Made by a program: the position numbers and the translations under genes. The notes beneath the pieces are model-generated. The model was not told the DNA's origin. It did no database searches and saw nothing but the letters and a program-made list of their open reading frames with translations. Positions 9,627-57,285 of a stretch of 64,000 bases of DNA are shown one piece after another (position 1 is the first letter of the stretch; each line of letters starts with the position of its first letter). The stretch comes from Diphasiastrum complanatum (taxonomy: Eukaryota; Streptophyta; Lycopodiopsida; Lycopodiales; Lycopodiaceae): NCBI GenBank assembly GCA_029204225.1, contig CM055104.1:22567952-22631951 (forward strand). Reading direction: 5' to 3'.

Positions 9627-10488
9627 TGATAAATTTTACAGTTTTTAGGACAATAATGATTGTACTTTACAATCATAGAGAGTTATTGGTTGCTTAATCA
9701 ATGAATCTATCAAGTTCTACACATTAGATCTTGATCTAGATTCACTACACTTGGATTTAAGCAAGAGCAATGGATCAACACATCATTTTTTAGTGAGAGC
9801 GGCTTCACACGTGTGGAGTACTGTCCACTGTACGGACTGCACCTGAAACAACAAGTACAATGATACTAGATAGCAATCATGCATAAAAATCACAAGACAA
9901 ATGACTAGAAATCTCACAAAAGTGTAGAGTGCAAAAGTCTCATCAATTTTCTTAGCAAAATGATGATCCTTTTATGGATCAAGTACATCCATGAGTCTGG
10001 TACAGTCCAGCAGGCCTTCACACGTGTGAAGAGTGCCACATCACTCATATCTATCCATTTGATCCATCCTTGATCCTTATCCAATAGTTGACCTTCTAGA
10101 ATATGACTAAAATCCAAAAAGCTAGTCTCCTAGAATATAGGAATATTCCCTACAAAATAGGATCTAAGGAAAATGGTCAACTCTTATCTTCTAGTACTCT
10201 ATACACACATGTGAACATCCACTTGCCATGTGGGAGCATTTACTCATGCACATGCAAGGAAAAGCTAATTTGTAGGTGACTAGTCAACTTGACTAAAAAC
10301 TAGTCATTTCATGTTCACACTAACTAGAATGATACAAAATCAATTTGGATATATACAAACATGAAAAGTACATCCTTTCACACATGGGAACATGCTCCAC
10401 ACGTGTGAAATCATATCATCAACATATTCTAATGTTTGATCAATATTTACATGAACCAATGTCAAGTGAGAAGTGACAATTTTCAACA
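9627..10488 (-). repeat. C1 3' LTR
   Basis: Runs from TGATAAATTTTACAG to TTTTCAACA on the plus strand, 862 bp, nearly identical to 15079-15940. It carries three CACACGTGTG palindromes (9806, 10021-2 and 10398) and, on the minus strand, a TATATATCC run near 10350 that may serve as a TATA element. Confidence 0.96.
9806..10407. promoter_or_regulatory. Three CACACGTGTG (G-box core) palindromes in the C1 LTR
   Basis: CACACGTGTG occurs at 9806-9815, 10019-10028 (within TTCACACGTGTGAA) and 10398-10407, and again at +5452 in the other LTR. A fuller version, TTTCACACGTGTGAAA, lies in the C1 leader at 14903-14918. The CACGTG core is the plant G-box bound by bZIP and bHLH factors. The same palindrome is in the LTR of C9. 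A promoter role is inferred, not shown. Confidence 0.5.
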
Positions 10489-10501
10489 CTCCTCCTCACT
10501 T
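10489..10501 (-). other. C1 polypurine tract
   Basis: On the minus strand AAGTGAGGAGGAG lies between the pol stop codon and the 3' LTR, all purine except one T. It would prime plus-strand DNA synthesis. Exactly 13 nt separate stop and LTR, the same spacing as in C9. Confidence 0.85.
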
Positions 10502-13500
10502 CTAACTTGGCAAATCTAGTGTACATCTATCTACAATTCCAAGAGCATATCTTGACTTAAAAAATGGATCTTTGGACAATGGTTTGGTTAAGATATCAGC
10601 TATGCATTCGGATGATGGTACATGATGTAGTTGCACTTCCTTGGATTGTACCTTCTCCCTCACAAAGTGGTGAGCTATCTCAATATGCTTTGTTCTAGCA
10701 TGGAAGATAGGATTTGAAGCAATTTGTTGAGAAGCTTGATTGTCACAAAATATGTAAGGGATCTCCTCGGCCTCTAGCACATGTAGTTCCATCAAGAGTC
10801 TTCTTAGCCATAAGAGCTCTTTGGTTGTTGAAGTCAATGCCTTGTACTCGGCTTCACAAGAAGATAGTGAGATTGTATCTTGCTTTTTGGAAAGCCAAGA
10901 TATCACTCCTCCACAAAGAAATGTTGCAAATGCACTAATGGACTTCCTATCCATCTTGTCACCTGCAAAATCTGAATCCGAGTAGGCTCTCAAGTGCAAG
11001 TTAGATCCTTCATAAAGTATACCAAAAAATCTAGTACTAGAAACATATCTAAGTACTCTCTTGGCACTTTTCCAATGATGAATTAAAGGAGCTTGCATAC
11101 TTTGACTCAACTTGCTTACACAAAAACTTAAGTCAGGTCTAGTGATGGTTAAATAGATTAGAGAGCCTATAAGCTTCCTAAAGAGAGTGATGTCCTCAAA
11201 GGATGCTTCATCACCTTCATTAGTTGCTTTCACAACATGCTCCATAGGGTTGTCAATCCCCTTACAATCTTTCATACCAAATCTTTCAAGAATGGAAGTA
11301 GCATACTTAGATTGACTTATGAAAGTACAATTGCTACTTCTAGACACTTCTATCCCAAGTATAAACTTTAGGAAGCCTAGATCTACCATCTTGAACTCAC
11401 TAGATAAGTCAACTTTTACTTTGCCTATGCCATCATCATCATTTCCTGTCATAATGATGTCATCAACATAAAGAACCAAAATGATGATCTTTCCTTCATT
11501 ACATTTGAAATATAAAGAAGGTTCATAAGCACTTAGTACAAAGCCAAGAGAATAGAGAAAATCATGCAACCTAGAGTACCAAGCTCTAGGTGCTTGCTTC
11601 AAGCCATATAGGCTCTTCCTTAAGTAGCACACCTTTTGCTCCTCACCAATCTTGATGAAGCCCTCGGGTTGCATCATGTAGATTTCCTCTTCTAAGAAGC
11701 CATTCAAGAAGGCATTTGTCACATCCATTTGGTAGAGATCCCATTTGAACAAAGTAGCAATGCAAATGATTAATCTAATAGTTACAAGCTTAGCTACAGG
11801 TGCAAATGTTTCTTCATAATCCAATCCTTTTATTTGAAGAAATCCCTTAGCAACAAGCCTAGCTTTGTATTTACTAATAGATCCATCTTGATTGTACTTA
11901 ATTCTATAAATCCACTTACATGCAAGTGGTTTCTTTCCTCTTGGAAGATTTACAAGATTCCAAGTATGATTTTCTTCTAATGCATCATACTCTACTTGCA
12001 TTGCATCTCTCCAAACTTTAGATTTACATGCTTCTTCAAAAGATGATGGTTCTTCAATCAATGTAGCTAAAAAAGAGTAAGAGGTAGAAGATGTAGAGCC
12101 TTCCTTTTGCTTTCCCTTGTCCACATAGGTAAGCCTTGAGGGCTCGGCCTTGCTCCTTGATGATCTTCTTGGCCCCTTTTGACTTGGATCCAAATCTCCA
12201 TCCTTGGTTTTGTCATGATCCTCCTCGGGTTTGTCAAGATCCTCCTCGGATTTGTCAAGATCTTCAATGCACAATGGGTTAGATCCATTTGACAAGCTCT
12301 TAGCAAATTGTGACTCATCAAAAAGTACATCCTTGCTTACCTTTACTTTCTTGGATGTAGGATCATATATCCTATATCCCTTGCTATTTTCTCCATAGCC
12401 AACAAAGATTCCTTTGAAGGAGGTATCATCTTCTTTCCTTCTAGTCTCCAAAGGAATGTGTACATAACAAGTACATCCAAAGATCTTAAAATATTTTACA
12501 TTGGGTTTCTTATCAAACAAGGCTTGATAAGGTGAGATCCCATCTATAGCACTACTAGGAAGTCTATTACACAAATAATTAGCACATGTTATGGCTTCTC
12601 CCCAAAATGAGATGGGAAGTGATGCATCAAGCCTCAAGGACTTTGCACACTCACATAGACTCCTATTTTTCCTCTCGGCCACCCCATTTTGTTGAGGGGT
12701 GTAGGAACAAGTGTATTGTAACTTAATACCATTGATCTCACAAAAGTCTTTCATTTTATTGGAGGTGTACTCTCCTCCATTATCACATCTTAGTGCTTTG
12801 ATAGAAGTACTAAGTTGTTTCTCTACTAGAGACTTGAACTTAATGAAAGCTTCATAAACAAGATTTTTCTTTGATAGTAACTCAATCCATGTGAATCTAG
12901 TACAATCATCTATAAAAGTTACATACATCAAGGCACCTCCATTACTTGCATGTGAAAAACTATGTACATCAGAATGTATGAGATCCAAGGGAGAGAGAGA
13001 TCTTGATGAAGATTTCTTGTAAGAAGATTTGTGTGACTTTGCAAGGCCACATGCCTCACACATTTTTCCACACTTCTTGAAAGCTCTTGGTAGGCCGAGA
13101 GCTAGTTCCTTGCTTGCCATTGACTCCATAGATTGAAGATTAGGATGGCCTAATCTCTTATGCCAAAGCTCCACTTGAGTTAGCTCCTCCCTAGCCAAGT
13201 TCACACTTTCACTTGCAACATTAGCATCCAACTTGAAAAGTCTACCTTGCTTAATGCCACTAGCTATGCACTTATCATTTTTCAAGATGGAACAAACTCC
13301 ATTCTTGAAATGTACATCTAGTCCATTGTCCATTAATTGTACTACACTAAGCAAGTTTCTTGAAATGGTAGGAACATACAAAACATTATCTAGATCTATC
13401 CTTTTAGATGTGCCTAAACAAAGAGGTATAGATCCTATGCCATCTATCTTGCATGCTTGATCACTAGCAGTGTATATTGACTTCTTAGAGTCATTACAAG

Positions 13501-13789
13501 ATAGAAGAGTAGAAAAATAATGCTTGTTAAAGGACATGTGGGAACTAGCCCCACTATTTATCCACCATGTGTCTTGACTTGAAGTTGGTGTAGATGCAAC
13601 CATTAAGGATGTGTTGAATCCATCCTCATATTCTTCCTCTTGAGCAATGTTCCCTTGATCTCCTTTGGCTTGTTGATTCTTCTTCAAGTAGCATTCTGAG
13701 GCAAAGTGTCCTTTCTTTCCACAAAAGAAACACTTTAGTTTTGCCTTGTTCTTCACTTTGCCTTTGGAGGTAGATCCTCCATTCTTCAT
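10502..13789 (-). CDS. pol: C1 Pol: nucleocapsid knuckle, protease, integrase, RT, RNase H
   Basis: A single 1,095-codon frame, of near full copia length. Zinc knuckle CFFCGKKGHFASEC at residues 20-33. Protease box WWINSGASSHM at 75-85, where Asn78 (codon AAT at 13556-13558) replaces the catalytic Asp. Integrase has H210/H215 with C244/C247, then D274 (LIHSDV), D336 (RCDNGGEY) and E372 (NGVAERKN), a correct D-35-E spacing. An acidic EDLDK-type repeat lies at 509-527. RT has QMDVTNAFLNG and YVDD at 774-777; RNase H has YSDSDFAGD at 936 and SSCEAEYKA at 976. The frame is continuous with gag except for one UAG (13796-13798), so translation probably starts in gag and the ATG used here is only the first after the stop. 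Only the protease looks catalytically dead. Confidence 0.93.
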   Translation of the reverse strand: MKNGGSTSKGKVKNKAKLKCFFCGKKGHFASECYLKKNQQAKGDQGNIAQEEEYEDGFNTSLMVASTPTSSQDTWWINSGASSHMSFNKHYFSTLLSCNDSKKSIYTASDQACKIDGIGSIPLCLGTSKRIDLDNVLYVPTISRNLLSVVQLMDNGLDVHFKNGVCSILKNDKCIASGIKQGRLFKLDANVASESVNLAREELTQVELWHKRLGHPNLQSMESMASKELALGLPRAFKKCGKMCEACGLAKSHKSSYKKSSSRSLSPLDLIHSDVHSFSHASNGGALMYVTFIDDCTRFTWIELLSKKNLVYEAFIKFKSLVEKQLSTSIKALRCDNGGEYTSNKMKDFCEINGIKLQYTCSYTPQQNGVAERKNRSLCECAKSLRLDASLPISFWGEAITCANYLCNRLPSSAIDGISPYQALFDKKPNVKYFKIFGCTCYVHIPLETRRKEDDTSFKGIFVGYGENSKGYRIYDPTSKKVKVSKDVLFDESQFAKSLSNGSNPLCIEDLDKSEEDLDKPEEDHDKTKDGDLDPSQKGPRRSSRSKAEPSRLTYVDKGKQKEGSTSSTSYSFLATLIEEPSSFEEACKSKVWRDAMQVEYDALEENHTWNLVNLPRGKKPLACKWIYRIKYNQDGSISKYKARLVAKGFLQIKGLDYEETFAPVAKLVTIRLIICIATLFKWDLYQMDVTNAFLNGFLEEEIYMMQPEGFIKIGEEQKVCYLRKSLYGLKQAPRAWYSRLHDFLYSLGFVLSAYEPSLYFKCNEGKIIILVLYVDDIIMTGNDDDGIGKVKVDLSSEFKMVDLGFLKFILGIEVSRSSNCTFISQSKYATSILERFGMKDCKGIDNPMEHVVKATNEGDEASFEDITLFRKLIGSLIYLTITRPDLSFCVSKLSQSMQAPLIHHWKSAKRVLRYVSSTRFFGILYEGSNLHLRAYSDSDFAGDKMDRKSISAFATFLCGGVISWLSKKQDTISLSSCEAEYKALTSTTKELLWLRRLLMELHVLEAEEIPYIFCDNQASQQIASNPIFHARTKHIEIAHHFVREKVQSKEVQLHHVPSSECIADILTKPLSKDPFFKSRYALGIVDRCTLDLPS

Positions 13790-13795
13790 CTCGGC

Positions 13796-14482
13796 CTACT
13801 TGCCTTGATTTTTCTTGAATGGATTTTGCTTTTTCTTGCCATTAGATGTAAAGTTAGCTTTCTCCTCTCCTCCATTAAGTGACATGCTATCCATTCTTGT
13901 CTTGAGGTGTAGAAGCCTACTCTCCTCGGCCACAAGAACATTGTGCAACGTTTCAATGGATGGAAGAGAGTCTTGAATGGCAAATGATTGGACTAAGTTG
14001 GTAAACTCATCACTTAGACCATTCAAAATGATTTGTACTAGTTCTTGATCTTGGATCTTCTCTCCTATTGCACTTAACTCCTTGTTAAGAGATTTGATCC
14101 TAAGAACATACTCTTGTCCACTCTCTCCACTTCCTTTCATGCTTTGGAAAACTTGATTTCTTAGCATGAGGATTCTTGAAGTATTGTTGGATTCATAAAT
14201 GCTCTTTAATGAATCCCAAGCCTCTTTGGATGAGGTACAAGAAGACACCTCTTTCAAGAGGTCATTGCATACATTTAACTTTATGCAATGTAGAGCTAAT
14301 CTTGCTCTCTTCTTGTATTTGGCTTGTTCTTGGGGAGTTTGAGGCTCTTCCTCTACTCCTTGAACTATGTCATATAGATCATGGATCACTAGGAGTGATT
14401 CCATTCTCACTTTCCAAATGGAATAATTTGTGGAAGTGAGTCTCTCACTTGATTCCATCAAATATCCACCCATGGATGACAT
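13796..14482 (-). CDS. gag: C1 Gag capsid protein
   Basis: Copia Gag of 228 residues starting MSSMGGYLMESSERLTSTNY, with the UBN2/DUF4219-type capsid signature NYSIWKVRMESLL and later LVQIILNGLSDEFTNLVQSF. It ends in a basic tail (NPFKKNQGK) just before the zinc knuckle. The knuckle lies in the next frame segment because UAG at 13796-13798 is followed in frame by Ala-Glu-Met of pol. The homologous C9 ORF has no stop here, so the UAG is either a nonsense change (for example from CAG) or a programmed readthrough site. Its start matches C7 and C9. Confidence 0.93.
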   Translation of the reverse strand: MSSMGGYLMESSERLTSTNYSIWKVRMESLLVIHDLYDIVQGVEEEPQTPQEQAKYKKRARLALHCIKLNVCNDLLKEVSSCTSSKEAWDSLKSIYESNNTSRILMLRNQVFQSMKGSGESGQEYVLRIKSLNKELSAIGEKIQDQELVQIILNGLSDEFTNLVQSFAIQDSLPSIETLHNVLVAEESRLLHLKTRMDSMSLNGGEEKANFTSNGKKKQNPFKKNQGK

Positions 14483-15066
14483 TTTAGAATGAATGCTCTT
14501 TTAAAAATCACAAAGATTTTTGAATTTTAAAAGATCTATGAAGTGGCCTAAAGCTTACTAGAATGCCTATAGGCTTGTCTCTATCAAACTAACACACAAG
14601 CTTGAATGATACTCAAAGATCTTACCAAAAATTTCTAGCTTTCACTCTCACAAAAAAAAATTGCTTTACACTTTTCTTAGAGATTTCACTTCAACTAAGG
14701 ATCTGAACAAATCAGCCTCTTAGATCTGATCTTAGACTCTAAAAAGAAATGCTTCAATGATCCAAAACACTATTTGGTCATAGGCATTAGTTAGAATGAA
14801 TCTAGATCAATACTATGCTTCAAAAAGCACCAAAAATGAACTAGTATTGTGATTTTGGGACCAAAAAACACAAAGTAACTTGAATTGAAAGTTGCTGTAC
14901 GGTTTCACACGTGTGAAAAGTACATACACAGCCTCCAAGTCGTTTTGATCCAAATGATTACAAGCTATCACTCTAGAAGAACTCGCCCTCACTAGTATTG
15001 GCCAAAAAACAAATTTTGCCAATGATCTTTACAAGATTTATGATTCAATGATCACTCTCTTACTTA
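14483..15066 (-). other. C1 5' leader (untranslated)
   Basis: About 580 bp between the primer site and the gag start, with no supported ORF. It contains the palindrome TTTCACACGTGTGAAA at 14903-14918. Packaging and dimerisation signals would be expected here, but none can be identified. Confidence 0.7.
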
Positions 15067-15078
15067 GCTCTGATACCA
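15067..15078 (-). other. C1 primer binding site (tRNA-iMet)
   Basis: On the minus strand TGGTATCAGAGC directly follows the 5' LTR, with no spacer. This is the classic complement of the 3' end of plant initiator tRNA-Met and fixes the element's orientation. Confidence 0.95.
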
Positions 15079-15940
15079 TGATAAATTTTACAGTTTTTAG
15101 GACAATAATGATTGTACTTTACAATCATAGAGAGTTATTGGTTGCTTAATCAATGAATCTATCAAGTTCTACACATTAGATCTTGATCTAGATTCACTAC
15201 ACTTGGATTTAAGCAAGAGCAATGGATCAACACATCATTTTTTAGTGAGAGCGGCTTCACACGTGTGGAGTACTGTCCACTGTACGGACTGCACCTGAAA
15301 CAACAAGTACAATGATACTAGATAGCAATCATGCATAAAAATCACAAGACAAATGACTAGAAATCTCACAAAAGTGTAGAGTGCAAAAGTCTCATCAATT
15401 TTCTTAGCAAAATGATGATCCTTTTATGGATCAAGTACATCCATGAGTCTGGTACAGTCCAGCAGGCCTTCACACGTGTGAATAGTGCCACATCACTCAT
15501 ATCTATCCATTTGATCCATCCTTGATCCTTATCCAATAGTTGACCTTCTAGAATATGACTAAAATCCAAAAAGCTAGTCTCCTAGAATATAGGAATATTC
15601 CCTACAAAATAGGATCTAAGGAAAATGGTCAACTCTTATCTTCTAGTACTCTATACACACATGTGAACATCCACTTGCCATGTGGGAGCATTTACTCATG
15701 CACATGCAAGGAAAAGCTAATTTGTAGGTGACTAGTCAACTTGACTAAAAACTAGTCATTTCATGTTCACACTAACTAGAATGATACAAAATCAATTTGG
15801 ATATATACAAACATGAAAAGTACATCCTTTCACACATGGGAACATGCTCCACACGTGTGAAATCATATCATCAACATATTCTAATGTTTGATCAATATTT
15901 ACATGAACCAATGTCAAGTGAGAAGTGACAATTTTCAACA
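15079..15940 (-). repeat. C1 5' LTR
   Basis: 862-bp copy of 9627-10488, offset 5452, with one base difference noticed. Contains the element's promoter if active. Confidence 0.96.
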
Positions 15941-40645: not shown

Positions 40646-41575
40646 ATGACTTCAATGGGTGTCTTTCTATTAGAAGCAAGTGAAAGATTGTCAACCTCCA
40701 ATTACTCAATTTGGAAGGTTAGAATAGAATATGTCTTAATACTACAAGATGTGATGGATATTGTACTTGGCATTGAAGAAGAACCACAAATTCCTCAAGA
40801 AATTCCAAAGTACAAAAAGAGAGCCAGGATGGCTCTATATTATATTAAGATGAATGTCTCAAATGACATTTTAAGAGAAATTGGTGCTTGTACTAATGCC
40901 AAAGATGCTTAGGATACTCTCAAGTCTATCTATGAGGCAAAGAATACTTCTAGATTTCTAACACTAAGAAACCAAAATTTTCAAAGTGTACAAAGAAGTG
41001 ATGAATGTGCTTCAACTTATGTAATGAGAGCTAAAGACCTCCATAGAGAATTGTCATGCATAGGAGACTCCATCAACCGAAATGAACTTGTTCAAGTCAT
41101 ACTTAATGGGTTAAAGGAGGAATATGACAACCTTGTTCAGAGTTATGCCATTAAGGAGGAGCTACCAAGTTTGGAAGCACTCCAAAGTGTGCTCATTTCT
41201 GAAGAATCAAGACAAGAGTATAAACCCTTGAAAATGGAGAGATTGTCTCTCAACATTGATGGTAAAGCTCTCTTTACCAAAGACAAGCACAAGACAAGAA
41301 GTAAGAATCAACATTAATCCTCTTCAAGCAAGAACAATCTTATTTCCAAGGAGAAAGGAGAAGAGGATGAGTCCTCTCAAGCTTCCACATCCAAGAAGAA
41401 GAAGAAAAACATCAAGTGTTTCTTTTGTGGCAAGAAGGGGCATTATGCCACCAATTGCTCCAAGAAGAAGAGTCAATTCAAGCAAGCCAACATTTCTAAT
41501 GAAGAGAAGGAAGATGCTCATGCAAGTGATGGAGAGGGGTCTCTTATGGTCTTGAGTTTTTCTTCATCACCTTGT
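40646..41575 (+). pseudogene. gag: C7: copia gag with zinc knuckle
   Basis: Gag of the C1/C9 type: MTSMGVFLLEASERLSTSNY, SIWKVRIEYVL, and LVQVILNGLKEEYDNLVQSY. Stops at 40910 (TAG where relatives have Trp) and 41315 (TAA) break it. The knuckle CFFCGKKGHYATNC lies in a continuing frame near 41420. It is cut off before the protease at about 41575, where gypsy integrase (E5) begins. No LTR or primer site is attached. Confidence 0.88.
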
Positions 41576-51170: not shown

Positions 51171-51351
51171 CCACCGTGATTTGCAACGTGTTTTGCGACA
51201 TGAATCGCGGGTTTAATTTTTTTTTAATTCATCACGGACGTCGGAAAAACACGTTGCTATAAGGTTGTCAGAATCCGAGAACTTTAAAATATGTCGCAGT
51301 TCGATAGGCATGACGTGCCGGACACCATAGAACCAAATTCTGGTGACGGCT
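51171..51351. mobile_element. CACTA-like element: left terminal segment (before C9)
   Basis: About 180 bp after the end of C8 homology, with GCGACATGAATCGCGG and GGACGTCGG motifs. It is continuous with 56906 onward once C9 is removed, since the ACGGC duplication joins them. It may contain the transposon's left end, but no CACTA terminus is readable. Confidence 0.45.
51347..51351. repeat. Target-site duplication of C9, left copy (ACGGC)
   Basis: ACGGC precedes the first TG of C9 and is repeated at 56906-56910 directly after the last CA. Confidence 0.95.
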
Positions 51352-51997
51352 GTGAAAATTGTCAACATTTCCTTGTCTAGTTTTAGGCCAAAATTGCTAA
51401 AAATGGCACATAGTTTAGGATCTGACTTTTCACACGTGTGAAACAGGTCTAGATATTTTTAGTAAGTGTATTTTTTCAGTATGAAGAAGTGTCAAACTTC
51501 AAGACCTTCGAAATGAGTCCATTTTCATGTATTTTGGACATATATGCCAATTTTACCTATATAGGGCATATTTTAGGTAAGGAGGGTCTAGAGAGAGGAG
51601 AGAGAGTCATCTCTCTCAGCTATATATAGCAGGTAGGCCGTGGAGAAACAGGTTGGAGCAGATCCATTGTATTCATTTGCTTAATGAGAGATTTTTCTAT
51701 TGGGTTCTCCTTCCATTGTTGGCATTGTGTAGTGATTGAGTTCAAGCTTTGTGTGTATGATCTTAGGTGCTTTCCAAAAGTGGTAGGCTGATGTATTATG
51801 GACTGTATAATGCTATTTTGGGCCGCACTTGATGTTTATGGAAGTTTCCATTTGTGATAAATGCTTTTTGATCAAGTTCTTTGCATTCTAGGTAGCATAG
51901 AATGTGTTGCCAATTCCTAGCTTATGTAGTTTGGAGTGCAAGCATTCAAGCCAATGATCTTGAAGTTTAGATCCACTTAGGATCTGTATTTTTCACA
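51352..51997 (+). repeat. C9 5' LTR
   Basis: TGTGAAAATTGTCAAC... to ...CTGTATTTTTCACA. Carries TTTTCACACGTGTGAAA (51427-51443), a GAGAGAG-TCAT-CTCTCTC stem (51600-51617) and a TATA box just after it. Confidence 0.97.
51620..51629 (+). promoter_or_regulatory. C9 LTR TATA box
   Basis: CTATATATAG lies in the middle of the LTR, 10 bases downstream of a 7-bp inverted repeat. It is well placed to direct transcription starting about 30 bases further on. The same sequence is in the 3' LTR (56528-56537). Confidence 0.65.
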
Positions 51998-52012
51998 TGG
52001 TATCAGAGCTGG
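51998..52012 (+). other. C9 primer binding site (tRNA-iMet)
   Basis: TGGTATCAGAGCTGG follows the LTR directly. The first 12 bases are identical to the C1 site. Confidence 0.96.
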
Positions 52013-53170
52013 TTGGCTTCTATTTACAGTAAGTATTCCATTTTTGGTGATATTTGGATGTTTGATCAAGTTCTAGCATGATTTTGCATTGCTTTGTTGA
52101 TCAAATCTTACTAACCTTTGTTTTGTGAGTTGAACTTGTGGATCAAAAGCATATTTCAGGTCTATTGAAGATCAGAGGCTGAAAATAAACTATTTTGGAT
52201 CAGATCATAACACCTAATCATTTGTGATTGTGAGGCTTGTGCATATTCAATACTAACAATGTTCTTTTCAATCCTATTGTTGACAATCTCCATTCTTGGA
52301 TGAACACTCTCCTTAAGTGGATGAAACTTCTCCTTAAGTGGATGACAAATGCTCTTTTGAGTGAGTTGTAATTCTCCTAAAGTCTGAGCAAAGCTCCCAT
52401 TTGGATGAAAGATCCCCTTTTTTGGGTGAACATATTGTAAGCTCCATTGTGAAGAGCATATTGTAAAGATTGTCATCAATTTTGGCATAATTTTTGGTGT
52501 ACTTTGTTGAGCATGTAAGTAACTCTCCTTATGTAATTTGATTGGAGCATTTGCTGGAAGGTGTTAACCATTATGCAAGTGTGTTTTCAGGTTCTTAACA
52601 GGTTGAGGAACATTCTCATGTGAAGTGATCTTAGATCTACATCTAAACACCAAGATTTGACAAGATAGTGAAGCTAGTCTTGTGATTCACTAAGTGTGCT
52701 CATTCATTCACCTCTAAATCTTGTATTTATCACTTGCTGGAGTTTATAAACTTTTAGAAGTGTGGTTTACATGTGGTTTTACAGGTTGAATCAATATCTT
52801 AGTGTGTTGATCATATGTTGATCAAGTTTGTTCATTACTAGGTAATCTTGGCATCCTAGTTTTGGGTATTTTCTAAGAATGCAAGTAACTCTTCACACCA
52901 TAACTTGATTTGGTCACTTGCTGGAAAGTTTGAGAGCTTAAACAAGAGTGTGTTCAGGTTGGTTTGAGTTTGTAATCCATTCTTAGTGTGTGCAAAGTGT
53001 TGCATGTGTTTCAATCTTCCTTTCTATGCTTGAAAGCCAAATAGTTTCAAGATAGAGGTCATTTAGGGTTCTAAATCTTTTAAGATCTTCTCCTTCTTCA
53101 TTTATTGAGAGAAAGGAGAGTGCTAGGTGCATTAGAACAGAGCCTAAGGACACAAGAAGATTTTAGCATC
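52013..53170 (+). other. C9 leader with internal repeats
   Basis: About 1.16 kb untranslated. Three loosely similar blocks, roughly at 52500-52610, 52690-52800 and 52860-52990, each contain ACTTGCTGGA or TTTGCTGGA, then GTGT/GTGG and (T)TTCAGGTT or TTTACAGGTT. A CTCCTTAAGTGGATGA unit is repeated at 52311-52345. The ...CAG/GT... tracts resemble splice acceptors or packaging repeats. No ORF. Confidence 0.6.
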
Positions 53171-56100
53171 ATGACATCCAATGGTGGAATCATGTTGGAA
53201 GCTAAAGAGAGGTTAAACTCTACAAACTATTCAACTTGGAAAGTGAGGATGGAGTCTTTACTAGAGTTGAATGAGCTAATGGATATAGTTGTGGGAATTG
53301 AAGAAAGACCTCTAATTCTTCAAGAGCAACTAAATTTTGATAGAAGGGCTAAAAGAGCCTTACATATCATAAAGATGAATGTTACCAATGAACTTCTTAA
53401 AGAAGTTGGTAAATGTACTTCTTCAAGTGAAGCATGGAATGCTTTGAAGAAGATCTATGAGTCCAAATCCACATCTAGGGTTCTCACCCTAAGAAGGCAA
53501 ATCTTCCAAAGTTGTCAAAGAGAGGGAGAGAGTGCACATTCATTTGTCTTGAAGGTTAAATCCTTGAATGATGATCTAGCATGCATAGATGAAAGCATAA
53601 AGGATGGGGAACTAGTTCAAGTCATGTTGAATGGTTTGCTTGATGAACATTCTAACCTTGTACAATGCTTTGCTATACAAAAGTCCTTGCCAAGTGTCAA
53701 TGACTTGCAAGAGATCTTGGTGGCTGAAGAGCATAGGTTGCAAGCCAAAGGTGGTGGTGCATCAACACAAGGTGGAGATGAAGAAGCTCTTTTCACAAAG
53801 GGCAAGTTCAAAGGCAAGTGGTCCAAGCAAGGTAGTTTGGAGCATGGAAAGCATTCTTCTTCTTTGCAAAGTAGGAAGCAAGATAAGTCCAAGTTCAAAT
53901 GTTTTTATTGTGGAGTGAAAGGACATTTTGCAAATGAATGCCATAAGAAACAAAATGCTAGATCTAGGTTGAGATCTAATGTACTTCTTGGAGATGATAA
54001 TTGTTGTGCTAACTTGGCAAGCTTTGGTGAATCTATGGTCAATTTTTTGGATCCATTGGATCTTGAAGATGCACTAGTGTTACCTACTAGTCATATGGAG
54101 TCATGTGGAGCTAAATTAGCATCATGTTTGTACTCTTCTACTCATGGACTTCCAAGGCTTGGTGGTTCTTCAATGGTGCTAGATGGCAAGTGCAAAAATG
54201 GAAAAGGTAAGGAAGGAGCTAACTTCATCAATGGAGTTGATGAAGATTCTTCTTTGGAAGTGATTGTTGCTAATGACTTGTTTGTTCATATGGAAAAAGA
54301 TGGAGATGCTAAGTGTCATTCTTTGCAAGAAGATGGTTGTTCTTCTAATTCTTTTCATATTGATGTATGTAATCATGTGGGAAAAGATGATGGTGCTTTG
54401 AGCATGCTTGAAGGAAATGGTTCTTTTACATCTTTTTGTGATAAAGTCATTTGTGCAACAAGTGGTGTCACATTTCTTCATAAAAAGAGTAGATCAAAGG
54501 TTTCTATCATGAGACTTGGTGAGGGAGATCACAAGTCAAAAGGAAGAGAAGTATGTGAAGTGTTCAAAGTAGGATGTACTTTGAATGATGTTTTTATGAA
54601 CGATAGTGAGGAAGAATCATTATCATATGACTCATTACCTAAATCATTGAGTAGAAGTTCATGTTTGAAAAGAGAGAGTACTTCAATCACTCTTATGTTG
54701 AAGGTACTAAGGATTCTTTTCTTGGCTTCTAATATTCAAGAGTCTTCTACTTCTTATGGTGCAACTATCAAGAGGGAGGTTTCTAACTTTTGTGGTGCTA
54801 GCATTAAGAGGGAGTCTTGTGAAGGAAAGGGCAATGGAAGAGTGGTTCTTGGGAAGATCCAAAGCATGGATCTAACATCTCTTCATCAACTCAAAGCATT
54901 CTATGATTGTGGTGGATTGTTCATTCATGGTCAAGATGGCAAAAGGTTGGTTGAAGAAGACTACATGGAGCAACTCAAGTGGCAACTTCTTCAAGGCAAG
55001 GGAGATATCATTGGTGAGCTTATTGAGGTTTTTTATGAACTCAAGAGGGCTGTTTTGATTAGGTTTGATACTCATCTTCACCTACTCTACTTCATGTTAA
55101 ATGGAAATGTTGGAATCTATCTTTTGGTTTATGATGGTGGCATTGTTTTCACTAACTATAGTGAAGGGTCAAATTTGAGCATTGATGAGATCTTGTGGGA
55201 TCTTAATCATGTGTTTGAGAGGGAATATCTTCAGAGTTTCAGATCTGAAGATGTTCACATATGCAAGATCTTTGATGTCTTATTGGAAGATCAAGAGGTT
55301 GATCTTGGATTGCTTCATCAACACCAAGAGACAAGTGGCAATTCGAAGCTAGTGAAAAGCATCAAAGAAGAGACAAATGGTCAAGGCATTTTGGATCTGT
55401 TTTTACAGGTTCTTGAAGGTTCAAGTAAGGTCTTTGGAGCTGCAAGGAAGTGTCTTCTTACTCTACCTCACTTGCCTAATCTCATGTATGAACATTGTTA
55501 TGTCAATGTGTTGAAATTGTCAAATTTCAATAAAACTAGTTCCATAGTTTTGCATCCTTTGGATCTTGGAGATGGAATAGTTATCATTGCTGGTTTGTAT
55601 GATCAAGTACATGAATTCATTCAGATCTTGAAAGGTATTGAAGTGGTCAATATGTTTTCTTTTGAACAAAGTTCAAGATCTAGTATTCTAGTGTTGGCAA
55701 ATTGGCAACTTGTTGACATTGTAGGATCAAGCGTTGTGTGCAAATCTTGTGGAGGTACTTCAAGTATTTCAAGTTCAGGTTTTGGTCATTCAAATGGAGT
55801 AGGGAACACATCTTTTTGGCATTCATTCACTCAAAGGCTTTCATGGATTGAAGATCTACAAAGGCAAGGTGGTGATGGAAGTTCATTCATGGAGATACAT
55901 GTTGCATTCACTATATGTATAGTGAAATGTGGAGGAGGCATGCAAACACTTGTTGATCACTTTCATTTACAACTTGTTTGCTGCTATTTTACAGAGAAAC
56001 CAGAGATGGATACATGGATGAATTCATTAATTGAGATTCTATGTTCTTTTACATGTACCATTTTTATGATTCTATGTAAAATTGATGTAAGAAACAGTGA

Positions 56101-56245
56101 AGCATCCTATATGGACACTATTATCTATATCAATTATGTTGTGTCCTATTTTGTACATATTAGGATCCTTGAGAAGAGATCTATTCTGATGATGGAGATC
56201 ATTCTTAAGTTGGAACAAAGTAGTGTTGTAAAACTAGCAAGTTAA
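53171..56245 (+). CDS. gag: C9 Gag-X protein: copia Gag and zinc knuckle fused to a ~780-residue region without protease or integrase
   Basis: Open for 1,046 codons from an upstream ATG at 53105. The start at 53171 (MTSNGGIMLEAKERL) is preferred because C1 and C7 Gag begin the same way; that gives about 1,024 residues. Numbered from 53105: capsid 30-230 (NYSTWKVRMESLLELNELMD, LVQVMLNGLLDEHSNLVQCF) and knuckle CFYCGVKGHFANEC at 266-279. Then about 300 residues with no known motif, including repeated GA-T/S-IKRE. Then a stretch that by eye follows copia RT in order: SMDLTS near 588, EEDYMEQ near 617, FYELKRA near 643, and LYFMLNGNVGIYLLVYDGGI where YVDD is expected. Near the end FTEKPEM resembles the FTKPL of RNase H. 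No D-S/T-G protease, HHCC or DDE. The stop is 13 nt before the LTR. If made, it is a structural Gag with an unknown, non-catalytic C-terminal part. Confidence 0.93.
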   Translation: MTSNGGIMLEAKERLNSTNYSTWKVRMESLLELNELMDIVVGIEERPLILQEQLNFDRRAKRALHIIKMNVTNELLKEVGKCTSSSEAWNALKKIYESKSTSRVLTLRRQIFQSCQREGESAHSFVLKVKSLNDDLACIDESIKDGELVQVMLNGLLDEHSNLVQCFAIQKSLPSVNDLQEILVAEEHRLQAKGGGASTQGGDEEALFTKGKFKGKWSKQGSLEHGKHSSSLQSRKQDKSKFKCFYCGVKGHFANECHKKQNARSRLRSNVLLGDDNCCANLASFGESMVNFLDPLDLEDALVLPTSHMESCGAKLASCLYSSTHGLPRLGGSSMVLDGKCKNGKGKEGANFINGVDEDSSLEVIVANDLFVHMEKDGDAKCHSLQEDGCSSNSFHIDVCNHVGKDDGALSMLEGNGSFTSFCDKVICATSGVTFLHKKSRSKVSIMRLGEGDHKSKGREVCEVFKVGCTLNDVFMNDSEEESLSYDSLPKSLSRSSCLKRESTSITLMLKVLRILFLASNIQESSTSYGATIKREVSNFCGASIKRESCEGKGNGRVVLGKIQSMDLTSLHQLKAFYDCGGLFIHGQDGKRLVEEDYMEQLKWQLLQGKGDIIGELIEVFYELKRAVLIRFDTHLHLLYFMLNGNVGIYLLVYDGGIVFTNYSEGSNLSIDEILWDLNHVFEREYLQSFRSEDVHICKIFDVLLEDQEVDLGLLHQHQETSGNSKLVKSIKEETNGQGILDLFLQVLEGSSKVFGAARKCLLTLPHLPNLMYEHCYVNVLKLSNFNKTSSIVLHPLDLGDGIVIIAGLYDQVHEFIQILKGIEVVNMFSFEQSSRSSILVLANWQLVDIVGSSVVCKSCGGTSSISSSGFGHSNGVGNTSFWHSFTQRLSWIEDLQRQGGDGSSFMEIHVAFTICIVKCGGGMQTLVDHFHLQLVCCYFTEKPEMDTWMNSLIEILCSFTCTIFMILCKIDVRNSEASYMDTIIYINYVVSYFVHIRILEKRSILMMEIILKLEQSSVVKLAS

Positions 56246-56258
56246 GTTGAAGAGGGAG
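56246..56258 (+). other. C9 polypurine tract
   Basis: GTTGAAGAGGGAG between the ORF stop and the 3' LTR. It aligns with the C1 tract (AAGTGAGGAGGAG) at the same distance from the stop. Confidence 0.85.
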
Positions 56259-56905
56259 TGTGAAAATTGTCAACATTTCCTTGTCTAGTTTTAGGCCAAA
56301 ATTGCTAAAAATGGCACATAGTTTAGGATCTGACTTTTCACACGTGTGAAACAGGTCTAGATATTTTTAGTAAGTGTATTTTTTCAGTATGAAGAAGTGT
56401 CAAACTTCAAGACCTTCGAAATGAGTCCATTTTCATGTATTTTGGACATATATGCCAATTTTACCTATATAGGGCATATTTTAGGTAAGGAGGGTCTAGA
56501 GAGAGGAGAGAGAGTCATCTCTCTCAGCTATATATAGCAGGTAGGCCGTGGAGAAACAGGTTGGAGCAGATCCATTGTATTCATTTGCTTAATGAGAGAT
56601 TTTTCTATTGGGTTCTCCTTCCATTGTTGGCATTGTGTAGTGATTGAGTTCAAGCTTTGTGTGTATGATCTTAGGTGCTTTCCAAAAGTGGTAGGCTGAT
56701 GTATTATGGACTGTATAATGCTATTTTGGGCCGCACTTGATGTTTATGGAAGTTTCCATTTGTGATAAATGCTTTTTGATCAAGTTCTTTGCATTCTAGG
56801 TAGCATAGAATGTGTTGCCAATTCCTAGCTTATGTAGTTTGGAGTGCAAGCATTCAAGCCAATGATCTTGGAGTTTAGATCCACTTAGGATCTGTATTTT
56901 TCACA
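56259..56905 (+). repeat. C9 3' LTR
   Basis: 647 bp, matching 51352-51997 with one 1-nt indel and one substitution noticed. Confidence 0.97.
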
Positions 56906-56910
56906 ACGGC
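56906..56910. repeat. Target-site duplication of C9, right copy (ACGGC)
   Basis: Matches 51347-51351. Confidence 0.95.
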
Positions 56911-56919
56911 CACAGGTGC

Positions 56920-57285
56920 TGACCTAGACGTTGCATTGCGACGTCTGACGTGGACGTCGAAATGCGACGTCCTATGTGGACGTCAGATTGCGATGTCCAA
57001 AGACATTGCAAACTGTCTGACGTGGCTGTCGGATTGCGACGTGCTAAAATTCAGTCGGATTCCAACGTCTGTAGACACAGAATGATCCCAAAATTTCACC
57101 GACGGATGTCCAATGCCCATTCGACGTCAATTTGACGTATCCTTGGATGTCGAAATCCGACATCTCATAAAGTTGTCGAAATCCAACGTCTGTTAACAAA
57201 ATGATCAAAAAATATATCCGACGTGTGTCCGAAGTCTATCCGACGCGTTAGGACGTCAGATTCCGACGTCCCAAATTAGGTGAAA
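56920..57285. repeat. Field of GACGTC / TCCGACGTC motifs
   Basis: Many copies of (C)GACGTC, GCGACGTC, CCAACGTCTG and CCGACGTG-type words in both orientations within 370 bp. En/Spm subterminal repeats bound by TNPA are short motifs of the type CCGAC..., so this is a candidate transposase-binding array. More copies lie at 51200-51350, and isolated ones within the TNPA-like gene. Confidence 0.6.

What the first reader, a model, noticed from the sequence alone, without database searches (positions are those of the whole stretch)
51352..56905. A young LTR retrotransposon whose only ORF is a ~1,024-residue Gag fused to an unknown C-terminal half
Seen: near-identical LTRs, ACGGC duplication, iMet primer site, polypurine tract, and one uninterrupted ORF that begins as a normal copia Gag with a CX2CX4HX4C knuckle and runs to 13 nt before the 3' LTR. 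No D-S/T-G protease, HHCC or D-D-35-E integrase is visible. Known: TR-GAG elements carry gag without pol, but their extra sequence is usually non-coding. Inference: about 780 codons without a stop in AT-rich DNA means the C-terminal part has been kept as protein, so this may be an undescribed non-autonomous element type with a Gag-linked accessory protein.
Basis: partly seen in the sequence, partly recalled or inferred. Interest (0 to 1): 0.92.

Follow-up and report, generated by a model that had tools for sequence, protein, structure and literature searches.

The report
Non-autonomous copia with Gag-fused tail
A very young, high-copy jumping gene of a plant-like genome makes only its shell protein, fused to a long tail that sits where the enzymes used to be; one piece of the tail looks like a dead reverse transcriptase, and another is an old module whose letters drift freely while stop codons stay rare.

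Summary
In detail: 647-bp LTRs with one mismatch, ACGGC duplication, iMet-type primer site, polypurine tract, one 1,024-codon ORF beginning as a copia Gag. It is one of a recent burst: 40 of 40 scored matches (of 4,372 candidates) are about 100% identical over the tail, and 20 of 20 fetched copies keep the ORF open (best-scoring copies only). The tail does not match pol by Pfam, but residues 568-683 resemble the copia RT palm (hhalign E 4e-4, 0 of 550 shuffles as high; the YVDD position reads YDGG). Residues about 692-1023 ('U') are an old module: 4 of 6 decayed relatives read Gag-PR-INT-U with RT and RH not detected in between. Between young and old copies Gag is strongly constrained (237/157/485 differences by codon position), U is not (274/257/287), although U has few stops (7; 41 expected). 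So an accessory protein with conserved sequence is not supported. Copies carry two exchanged Gag cassettes. Closest known: wheat RLG_Quinta (Gag plus a domain of unknown function, two swapped Gag variants, no RT or INT). This is a copia counterpart whose tail can be partly traced.

The parts
51346..51350 (.). target-site duplication ACGGC, left copy
51351..51997 (+). 5' LTR, 647 bp, TG...CA
51998..52009 (+). primer-binding site TGGTATCAGAGC (initiator-Met tRNA type; assignment recalled)
   Evidence: the same motif follows the 5' LTR of the autonomous copia of the window
52010..53170 (+). leader with 17 upstream ATGs and diverged internal repeats
53171..54001 (+). Gag part of the ORF, aa 1-277 (CA, CCHC knuckle about aa 243-257)
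   Evidence: Pfam; 58% aa identity over 212 aa to the Gag of the autonomous copia at 13796-14482
53000..53950 (+). exchanged block: type A in the window and 9 of 20 fetched copies, type B in 10 of 20, A/B recombinant in 1 of 20 (L016); about 20% nt difference inside, near-identity outside
   Evidence: block shown base by base for one B copy (L015), L016 and one A copy (L026); the other copies were assigned by ORF length, ORF start and overall identity
54002..54871 (+). tail part 1, aa 278-567: no homologue found, no match in the seven old-relative loci as tested; its start (54023-54137) matches at 87% a stretch near the 3' end of the old relative around L013
54872..55219 (+). tail part 2, aa 568-683: RT-palm-like stretch; the YVDD place reads YDGG at 55130-55141 (aa 654-657)
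55244..56242 (+). tail part 3, module U, aa 692-1024: shared with old decayed relatives, where it follows integrase
56249..56258 (+). polypurine tract GAAGAGGGAG
   Evidence: also in the old relative around L013; PPT-like motif found in L037 and L040 of six loci
56259..56905 (+). 3' LTR
56906..56910 (.). target-site duplication ACGGC, right copy

Best explanation
This is a non-autonomous Ty1/copia element of the Gag-plus-unknown-domain kind. It supplies Gag, a packageable RNA and the ends (PBS, PPT, LTR termini) that a helper's enzymes act on, and takes protease, RT, RNase H and integrase from an autonomous copia in trans (inferred; no helper was found). Its ORF descends from a Gag-Pol frame. 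In this lineage pol was lost piecemeal: some branches became Gag-PR-INT-U, this one Gag-x-dead-RT-U. The frame was kept open to near the old end of pol while the amino-acid sequence of at least the U part drifted. Co-packaged RNAs recombine during reverse transcription, which explains why two long-separated Gag cassettes sit in otherwise near-identical elements. Shown: structure, youth, multiplicity, intact ORFs in the copies read, Gag constraint, cassette exchange, relatives with Gag-PR-INT-U. Supported but weaker: RT descent of aa 568-683. Inferred: mobilisation in trans, and the tail being tolerated or used as a Gag extension.
For: Structure and Gag. Burst: (40 of 40 scored hits about 100% over 2,283 bp; 4,372 first-look candidates, the rest not scored). 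Intact ORF: 20 of 20 fetched copies, 1,024/1,028/1,030 aa; LTR differences 0-4 in the 17 copies where they could be counted site by site, TSD in 17 of 20. Gag purifying selection: dN 0.12, dS 0.91 between cassettes A and B. Exchange block. RT-like stretch: hhalign score 42.8, E 4e-4, against a 71-sequence profile; 40.9, E 7e-4 with an independent 52-sequence profile at the same place; best of 150 global shuffles 33.2 and of 400 local shuffles 32.8; reversed tail 25.5, reversed profile 26.4; best of 47 reversed window translations 29.3. Seventeen of 122 polyproteins hit by blastp at E<=1, as many in 0 of 1,000 shuffles. Relatives.
Against: No Pfam RT hit; a 71-sequence HMM with hmmsearch --max scores the tail no better than shuffles; hhalign probability only 27-54%; the best single BLAST score (33.1 bits) is reached by 8 of 1,000 shuffles. 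The fold predictions failed (mean pLDDT 33 and 38), and the PDB search of the second listed no RT among the 50 rows shown of 518. No INT or RH signal in the rest of the tail. The old relatives have no counterpart of aa 278-691 (0 codons aligned), so the ancestry of that stretch rests on the RT similarity alone. No helper with the same LTRs was found: the one pattern search meant for it did not complete.
Confidence: 0.66

Rival explanations
1. The tail is a functional Gag-linked accessory protein, evolving fast.
For: Open frame through the whole tail with coding-type codon bias in its frame, 9 of 9 windows; U stays almost stop-free in old relatives: 7 stops in 869 codons, random placement of the same substitutions gives 41 on average and at least 25 in 1,000 runs; a candidate membrane-spanning stretch at aa 953-971 by hydropathy.
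Against: No codon-position bias in U (274/257/287, P 0.44) where Gag gives 237/157/485; pooled NG86 dN 0.375, dS 0.574; for aa 702-774 against one relative, third-position count P 0.42 and amino-acid-changing codons P 0.09 under neutral placement. No homologue in the protein and family libraries searched. The stop count is favoured by tblastn's choice of open frames, and the relatives share ancestry.
Confidence: 0.2
2. The tail is a captured host gene or host exons, as in maize Bs1.
For: Precedent named in PMC7264820 (two of three parts read).
Against: No database homologue (the 7,988 candidates sharing most words were scored, none at E<=1); U is an old module beside integrase in relatives and not a recent capture; the RT-like stretch.
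Confidence: 0.05
3. The tail is an env-like or other extra 3' ORF of an ancestral copia, fused to Gag when pol was deleted.
For: U follows INT in old relatives and reaches a PPT where one was found; [quoted passage not shown]
Against: No protein constraint on U; no splice site or membrane topology shown; the autonomous copia of the window has pol ending 13 nt before its LTR with no extra ORF.
Confidence: 0.2

Closest known systems
RLG_Quinta (wheat, Ty3/gypsy; PMC11302176, passages read)
   Same: Non-autonomous; one ORF of Gag plus a domain of unknown function (DUF1); no RT or INT; two Gag variants in elements that otherwise align well, attributed by the authors to template switching.
   Different: Gypsy, centromeric, helper RLG_Cereba proposed, no hint on the function of DUF1. 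Here: copia, no helper found, the tail partly traced to a pol-bearing lineage, Gag cassettes closer (80% against about 65% DNA identity).
TR-GAG elements, e.g. Arabidopsis AT5TE33540 (ATCOPIA63; PMC8704663, passages read)
   Same: LTRs plus a single Gag ORF, no pol, presumed mobilisation in trans; that ORF is reported as a 562-aa Gag.
   Different: Here the ORF is 1,024 aa and nearly three quarters of it is not Gag.
RLG_Sabrina / RLG_WHAM (wheat; PMC9744471, passages read)
   Same: High-copy families without RT and INT; some keep Gag; Sabrina variants in which other coding segments replace part of the element.
   Different: Gypsy; Gag-protease; the unique segments replace Gag-Pro and are not fused behind Gag.
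Autonomous copia of the same window, 9627-15940, minus strand
   Same: Gag 58% identical over 212 aa; same PBS; stop codon 13 nt before the 3' LTR in both.
   Different: Different LTRs (862 bp), has PR-INT-RT-RH; not shown to be the helper.

Membership tests
Ty1/copia superfamily (Pseudoviridae-type LTR element) | copia-type Gag with CCHC knuckle | tested here: met
   PF14223 E 5e-22; knuckle below Pfam cut-off but the motif is present
Ty1/copia superfamily (Pseudoviridae-type LTR element) | pol order PR-INT-RT-RH (order recalled) | tested here: not met
   No pol model in the element itself; old relatives have PR then INT with RT/RH not detected. Copia by descent of Gag, not by pol order.
TR-GAG | two LTRs, PBS, PPT, a Gag ORF and no pol enzymes | tested here: met
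TR-GAG | ORF is Gag only | tested here: not met
   747 further codons in frame
TR-GAG | transposition in trans | not testable with these tools
   Recent insertions shown; helper not found
Gag + DUF non-autonomous elements (RLG_Quinta-like architecture) | Gag fused to a domain of unknown function, RT and INT absent | tested here: met
   the RT-like stretch has lost YVDD
Gag + DUF non-autonomous elements (RLG_Quinta-like architecture) | divergent Gag variants in otherwise similar elements | tested here: met
Gag + DUF non-autonomous elements (RLG_Quinta-like architecture) | autonomous partner with the same PBS, PPT and LTR ends | not tested
Bs1-like gene-transducing element | tail homologous to a host gene | tested here: not met
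   (databases searched; the host's own genes were not searched apart)
copia reverse transcriptase (RVT_2) | Pfam-level similarity and YVDD motif | tested here: not met
   No Pfam hit; YDGG
copia reverse transcriptase (RVT_2) | profile-level similarity above shuffled controls | tested here: met
   hhalign, 0 of 550 shuffles; not met by hmmsearch --max

The most novel reading that the evidence does not exclude
Openness itself is selected: in this lineage a Gag-fused tail of several hundred codons has been kept free of stops and long enough to reach the PPT while its amino-acid sequence drifted almost freely, because translating ribosomes, or a long Gag extension of any sequence, benefit the RNA (for instance by avoiding nonsense-mediated decay or small-RNA production, or by filling the particle).
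Probability: 0.2. Interest if true: 0.75.

Novelty: new variant of a known kind. Interest (0 to 1): 0.5.

Why it matters
Gag-plus-unknown-domain elements are known in a wheat gypsy family, but where the extra domain comes from is open there. Here, in a copia lineage, old relatives show the module beside protease and integrase and one part resembles a dead RT, so the unknown domain can be studied as a late stage of pol loss. The contrast between a strongly constrained Gag and an open but unconstrained tail in one ORF makes it testable whether non-autonomous elements keep reading frames for the protein or for the openness. The exchanged Gag cassettes give a young case of recombination, most likely between co-packaged RNAs.

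Tried and rejected
Rejected: ordinary complete copia pol in the tail or in another frame. Chance ORF. Captured host gene. RNase H or integrase in the rest of the tail, also with a U profile of the young copy and six relatives. Structure prediction of aa 521-864 and aa 556-712 without relatives gave pLDDT 33 and 38, and the PDB search of the second gave 518 matches, none with E below 0.001: uninformative. Scans of viral contigs (one with the tail, one with Gag) and genome contigs (tail) gave no relative. NCBIfam gave only two sub-threshold, unrelated matches to the ORF and none to the tail; Rfam found nothing in the window at gathering scores. A pattern meant to find diverged tail copies returned zero; my own reckoning afterwards is that its power for decayed copies was low, so the zero means little. 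One search compared loci without turning minus-strand ones and is void apart from L001; one search replaced it (8 of 8 loci with ORFs of 1,024 or 1,030 aa; L001 is the window itself and L002-L008 are places fetched again). In one search the reverse-strand codon scores were spoiled by a one-strand background; one search replaced them. In one search the type-B row of the Gag alignment came out empty (start codon searched with the wrong letters); one search gives it.

Limits: the 20 fetched copies are the best-scoring ones, so their intact ORFs and identical tails (0 variable sites among the 20 over 2,244 nt) overstate the family's integrity. L009 and L014 share their TSD and may be one insertion in two contigs. 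In one search two copies lack an exact TSD (L010, L021), one could not be delimited (L019), L010 gave 330 mismatches because its LTRs are shifted against each other, and L013's LTRs differ in length. The U test rests on six loci (L029, L035, L037-L040) out of seven examined; L036 gave no U match; L032 gives the same U match as L029, shown but left out. The Gag control rests on L029 and L036-L040 (L035 gave none), so five loci are shared; in L039 most of the Gag match (189 of 223 codons) lies about 2.4 kb downstream of U and may belong to another copy. Without those 189 codons Gag still reads 190/128/396 (my subtraction). The codon test dropped codons that are stops in the old copy, stretches in gaps, matches under 34% identity and overlapping matches. 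Gag and U may differ in age because Gag cassettes are exchanged, so their overall divergences (about 30% and 32%) should not be compared as rates.
Full report
What is there. The window holds a complete LTR element at 51351-56905: two 647-bp LTRs (TG...CA) with one difference, 5-bp duplication ACGGC, primer site TGGTATCAGAGC directly after the 5' LTR, polypurine tract GAAGAGGGAG directly before the 3' LTR, and one ORF from 53171 to 56245. Pfam finds a copia Gag (aa 27-193, E 5e-22) and DUF4219, a sub-threshold zinc knuckle, and nothing of note in the tail. NCBIfam, the PDB by sequence and the protein database searched with aa 270-1024 (the 7,988 candidates sharing most words scored, none at E<=1) found no homologue of the tail; the whole ORF finds two plant copia proteins by its Gag, 25% identical. 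Scans of viral contigs (tail; Gag) and prokaryote contigs (tail) found none. The open frame is not chance: composition-matched sequences hold 38-49 stops on average and never fewer than 20 in 2,000, and the ORF frame has the best codon score in 9 of 9 windows. The signal is weakest in the last 95 codons.

A recent burst. The assembly has 1.745 Gb in 5,176 contigs; the window is a piece of contig 13. The tail as DNA query gave 4,372 first-look candidates, of which 40 were scored; all 40 match the whole query at about 100%. All 20 have LTR pairs and an open ORF of 1,024 (9), 1,028 (1) or 1,030 (10) codons. Seventeen of 20 have an exact 5-bp duplication; LTR pairs differ at 0-4 of 647 sites in the 17 that could be compared directly, five of them at none; in the other three the pairs are 97.4, 99.4 and 99.7% identical by BLAST. 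Because these are the best-scoring copies, they show that intact young copies are many, not that most copies are intact.

Exchanged Gag cassettes. Copies of type A (as in the window) and type B are almost identical in LTRs, most of the leader and the whole tail, but differ at about 20% of sites in one block of about 950 nt (53000-53950) covering the end of the leader and Gag up to the knuckle; L016 carries A up to about 53780 and B after it (base by base for L015, L016 and L026; the other copies were assigned by ORF length, start and overall identity). Between the cassettes Gag has dN 0.12 and dS 0.91: old, constrained lineages of Gag put into one young element. Template switching between co-packaged RNAs is the usual explanation for such mosaics (for Quinta: PMC11302176, passages).

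What the tail is, part by part. (a) aa 568-683. BLASTP of the tail against 122 copia polyproteins gives weak hits that fall on one place, RT (12 hits at E<=1; 17 with a larger reporting limit). The best BLAST score alone is reached by 8 of 1,000 shuffles, but no shuffle hits as many sequences; the reversed tail hits 2. The 122 are related to each other, so the number of hits is not a count of independent matches. Profile comparison places aa 568-683 on the RT palm with score 42.8 (E 4e-4, probability 35%), repeated with an independent 52-sequence profile (40.9, E 7e-4, probability 27%); the highest of 550 shuffles is 33.2. The aligned order is D....FIHG - LVEEDYMEQ - Y.LKRA - LLVYDGGIVFTN against copia D....FLNG - L.EE.YMEQ - Y.LKQA - L.YVDD, so the catalytic YVDD (motif recalled) would be YDGG at 55130-55141. 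Against it stand a full HMM run with filters off, which does not separate the tail from shuffles, no Pfam hit, and uninformative fold models. I hold descent from RT likely, not proven.

(b) aa ~692-1023, module U. Copy L013 sits inside an old decayed relative. That relative has Gag (64% aa identity), an integrase remnant with the SH3_retrovirus domain (E 2.5e-16), then U sequence, and ends in the same PPT and a TGTGAAA start of a different LTR. A search with the integrase remnant gave 4,131 candidates, 40 scored (42 matches, 79-100% identity). Six of these loci were fetched with longer flanks. L037, L038, L039 and L040 read Gag, PR, INT, U; L035 reads INT, U; L036 reads Gag, PR, INT with no U match. 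The RT and RH queries from the window's autonomous copia matched none of the six between INT and U (RT/RH matches in L037 and RH matches in L040 lie upstream of the Gag and belong to something else). So U is an old part of this lineage and follows INT directly.

(c) aa 278-567 has no counterpart in the old relatives. Its first part (54023-54137) matches at 87% a stretch near the 3' end of the old relative around L013, and a shorter stretch of it (34 nt, 85%; aa 292-303) repeats within the ORF near aa 793-804: the tail has been rearranged.

Is the tail kept as protein? Differences between the young ORF and the old relatives by codon position: Gag 237/157/485 over 973 codons in six loci (P 4e-44), U 274/257/287 over 862 codons in six loci (P 0.44); five loci are shared. 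For aa 702-774 a neutral placement of the same changes is not rejected (third positions P 0.42, amino-acid changes P 0.09), while Gag aa 140-196 in the same relative rejects it (P 0.0005 and 0 of 2,000). Pooled NG86 for U: dN 0.375, dS 0.574. Yet U in the relatives has 7 stops in 869 codons where random placement of the observed substitutions gives 41 (minimum 25 of 1,000); the Gag matches hold 12 stops beside 973 compared codons. The stop count is biased downwards by tblastn's choice of frame and by shared ancestry, and DNA alignments of U contain indels that break the frame in these old copies. My reading: the frame was kept open longer than its amino-acid sequence was constrained. That is compatible with relaxed or fast-changing protein, or with selection on openness; it is not the signature of a conserved accessory protein.

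How it probably works. Inferred from structure: transcription from the LTR; translation of Gag with its tail, after a 1.2-kb leader with 17 upstream ATGs that may need splicing or reinitiation; particle formation; reverse transcription and integration by enzymes of an autonomous copia acting on the PBS, PPT and LTR ends. The window's own autonomous copia (9627-15940, minus strand; LTRs 862 bp, TSD GGAAG; Gag 58% identical) shares the PBS and the distance from stop codon to LTR (13 nt, ending LPS* against LAS*) but not the LTRs, so it is a relative, not the proven helper.

Comparison with what is known. The architecture Gag + domain of unknown function, no RT, no INT, two Gag variants exchanged between otherwise alignable elements is described for the gypsy family RLG_Quinta (PMC11302176; passages read). 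Gag-only copia elements are described as TR-GAG, one with a 562-aa Gag and observed transposition (PMC8704663; passages; also PMC9784723, passages). Extra ORFs in plant elements are reviewed in PMC7264820 (parts 1 and 2 of 3 read). The founding TR-GAG paper is not held. Nine searches (several lists capped) showed me no title or abstract of a copia element of this build; that is a listing of open-access papers, not proof of absence. I therefore call it a new variant of a known kind.

Noticed in passing
window 9627-15940 (minus strand): Young autonomous copia: LTRs 862 bp, TSD GGAAG, pol 10502-13789 and gag 13796-14482 in one frame separated by a stop; 37-48% identical to the 120 database polyproteins listed (of 5,297 matches), so the host lineage seems poorly sampled.
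   Followed up: partly
window 51431, 56339; 9806, 10019, 10398, 14906, 15258, 15471, 15850: The palindrome CACACGTGTG occurs nine times in the 64-kb window, all nine inside the two young copia elements (eight in LTRs, one in a leader): a possible shared promoter motif (G-box-like; label recalled).
   Followed up: no
window 52478-52960: The leader contains diverged copies of a ~119-nt unit (71% identity) with GTAAGT- or GCAAGT- and CAGGTT-like ends, which resemble small introns by eye.
   Followed up: no
window 40646-41470: Another copia gag remnant (48% aa identity), which seems to break off at about 41600 where a gypsy-like sequence begins (by eye, not tested).
   Followed up: no
window 56917-57273: Six diverged copies of a GACGTC-rich 32-nt repeat beside the insertion site.
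   Followed up: no
L029 3730-3761 (minus strand): A reversed LTR end with PBS, 91% alike over 32 nt to the LTR/PBS junction of this family, from another, unread element.
   Followed up: no
L035-L040: Old copia relatives with integrase (five of six also with Gag and PR) and no RT or RH detected between INT and U: apparently an older amplified non-autonomous family in its own right (40 of 4,131 candidates scored, 79-100% identity).
   Followed up: partly
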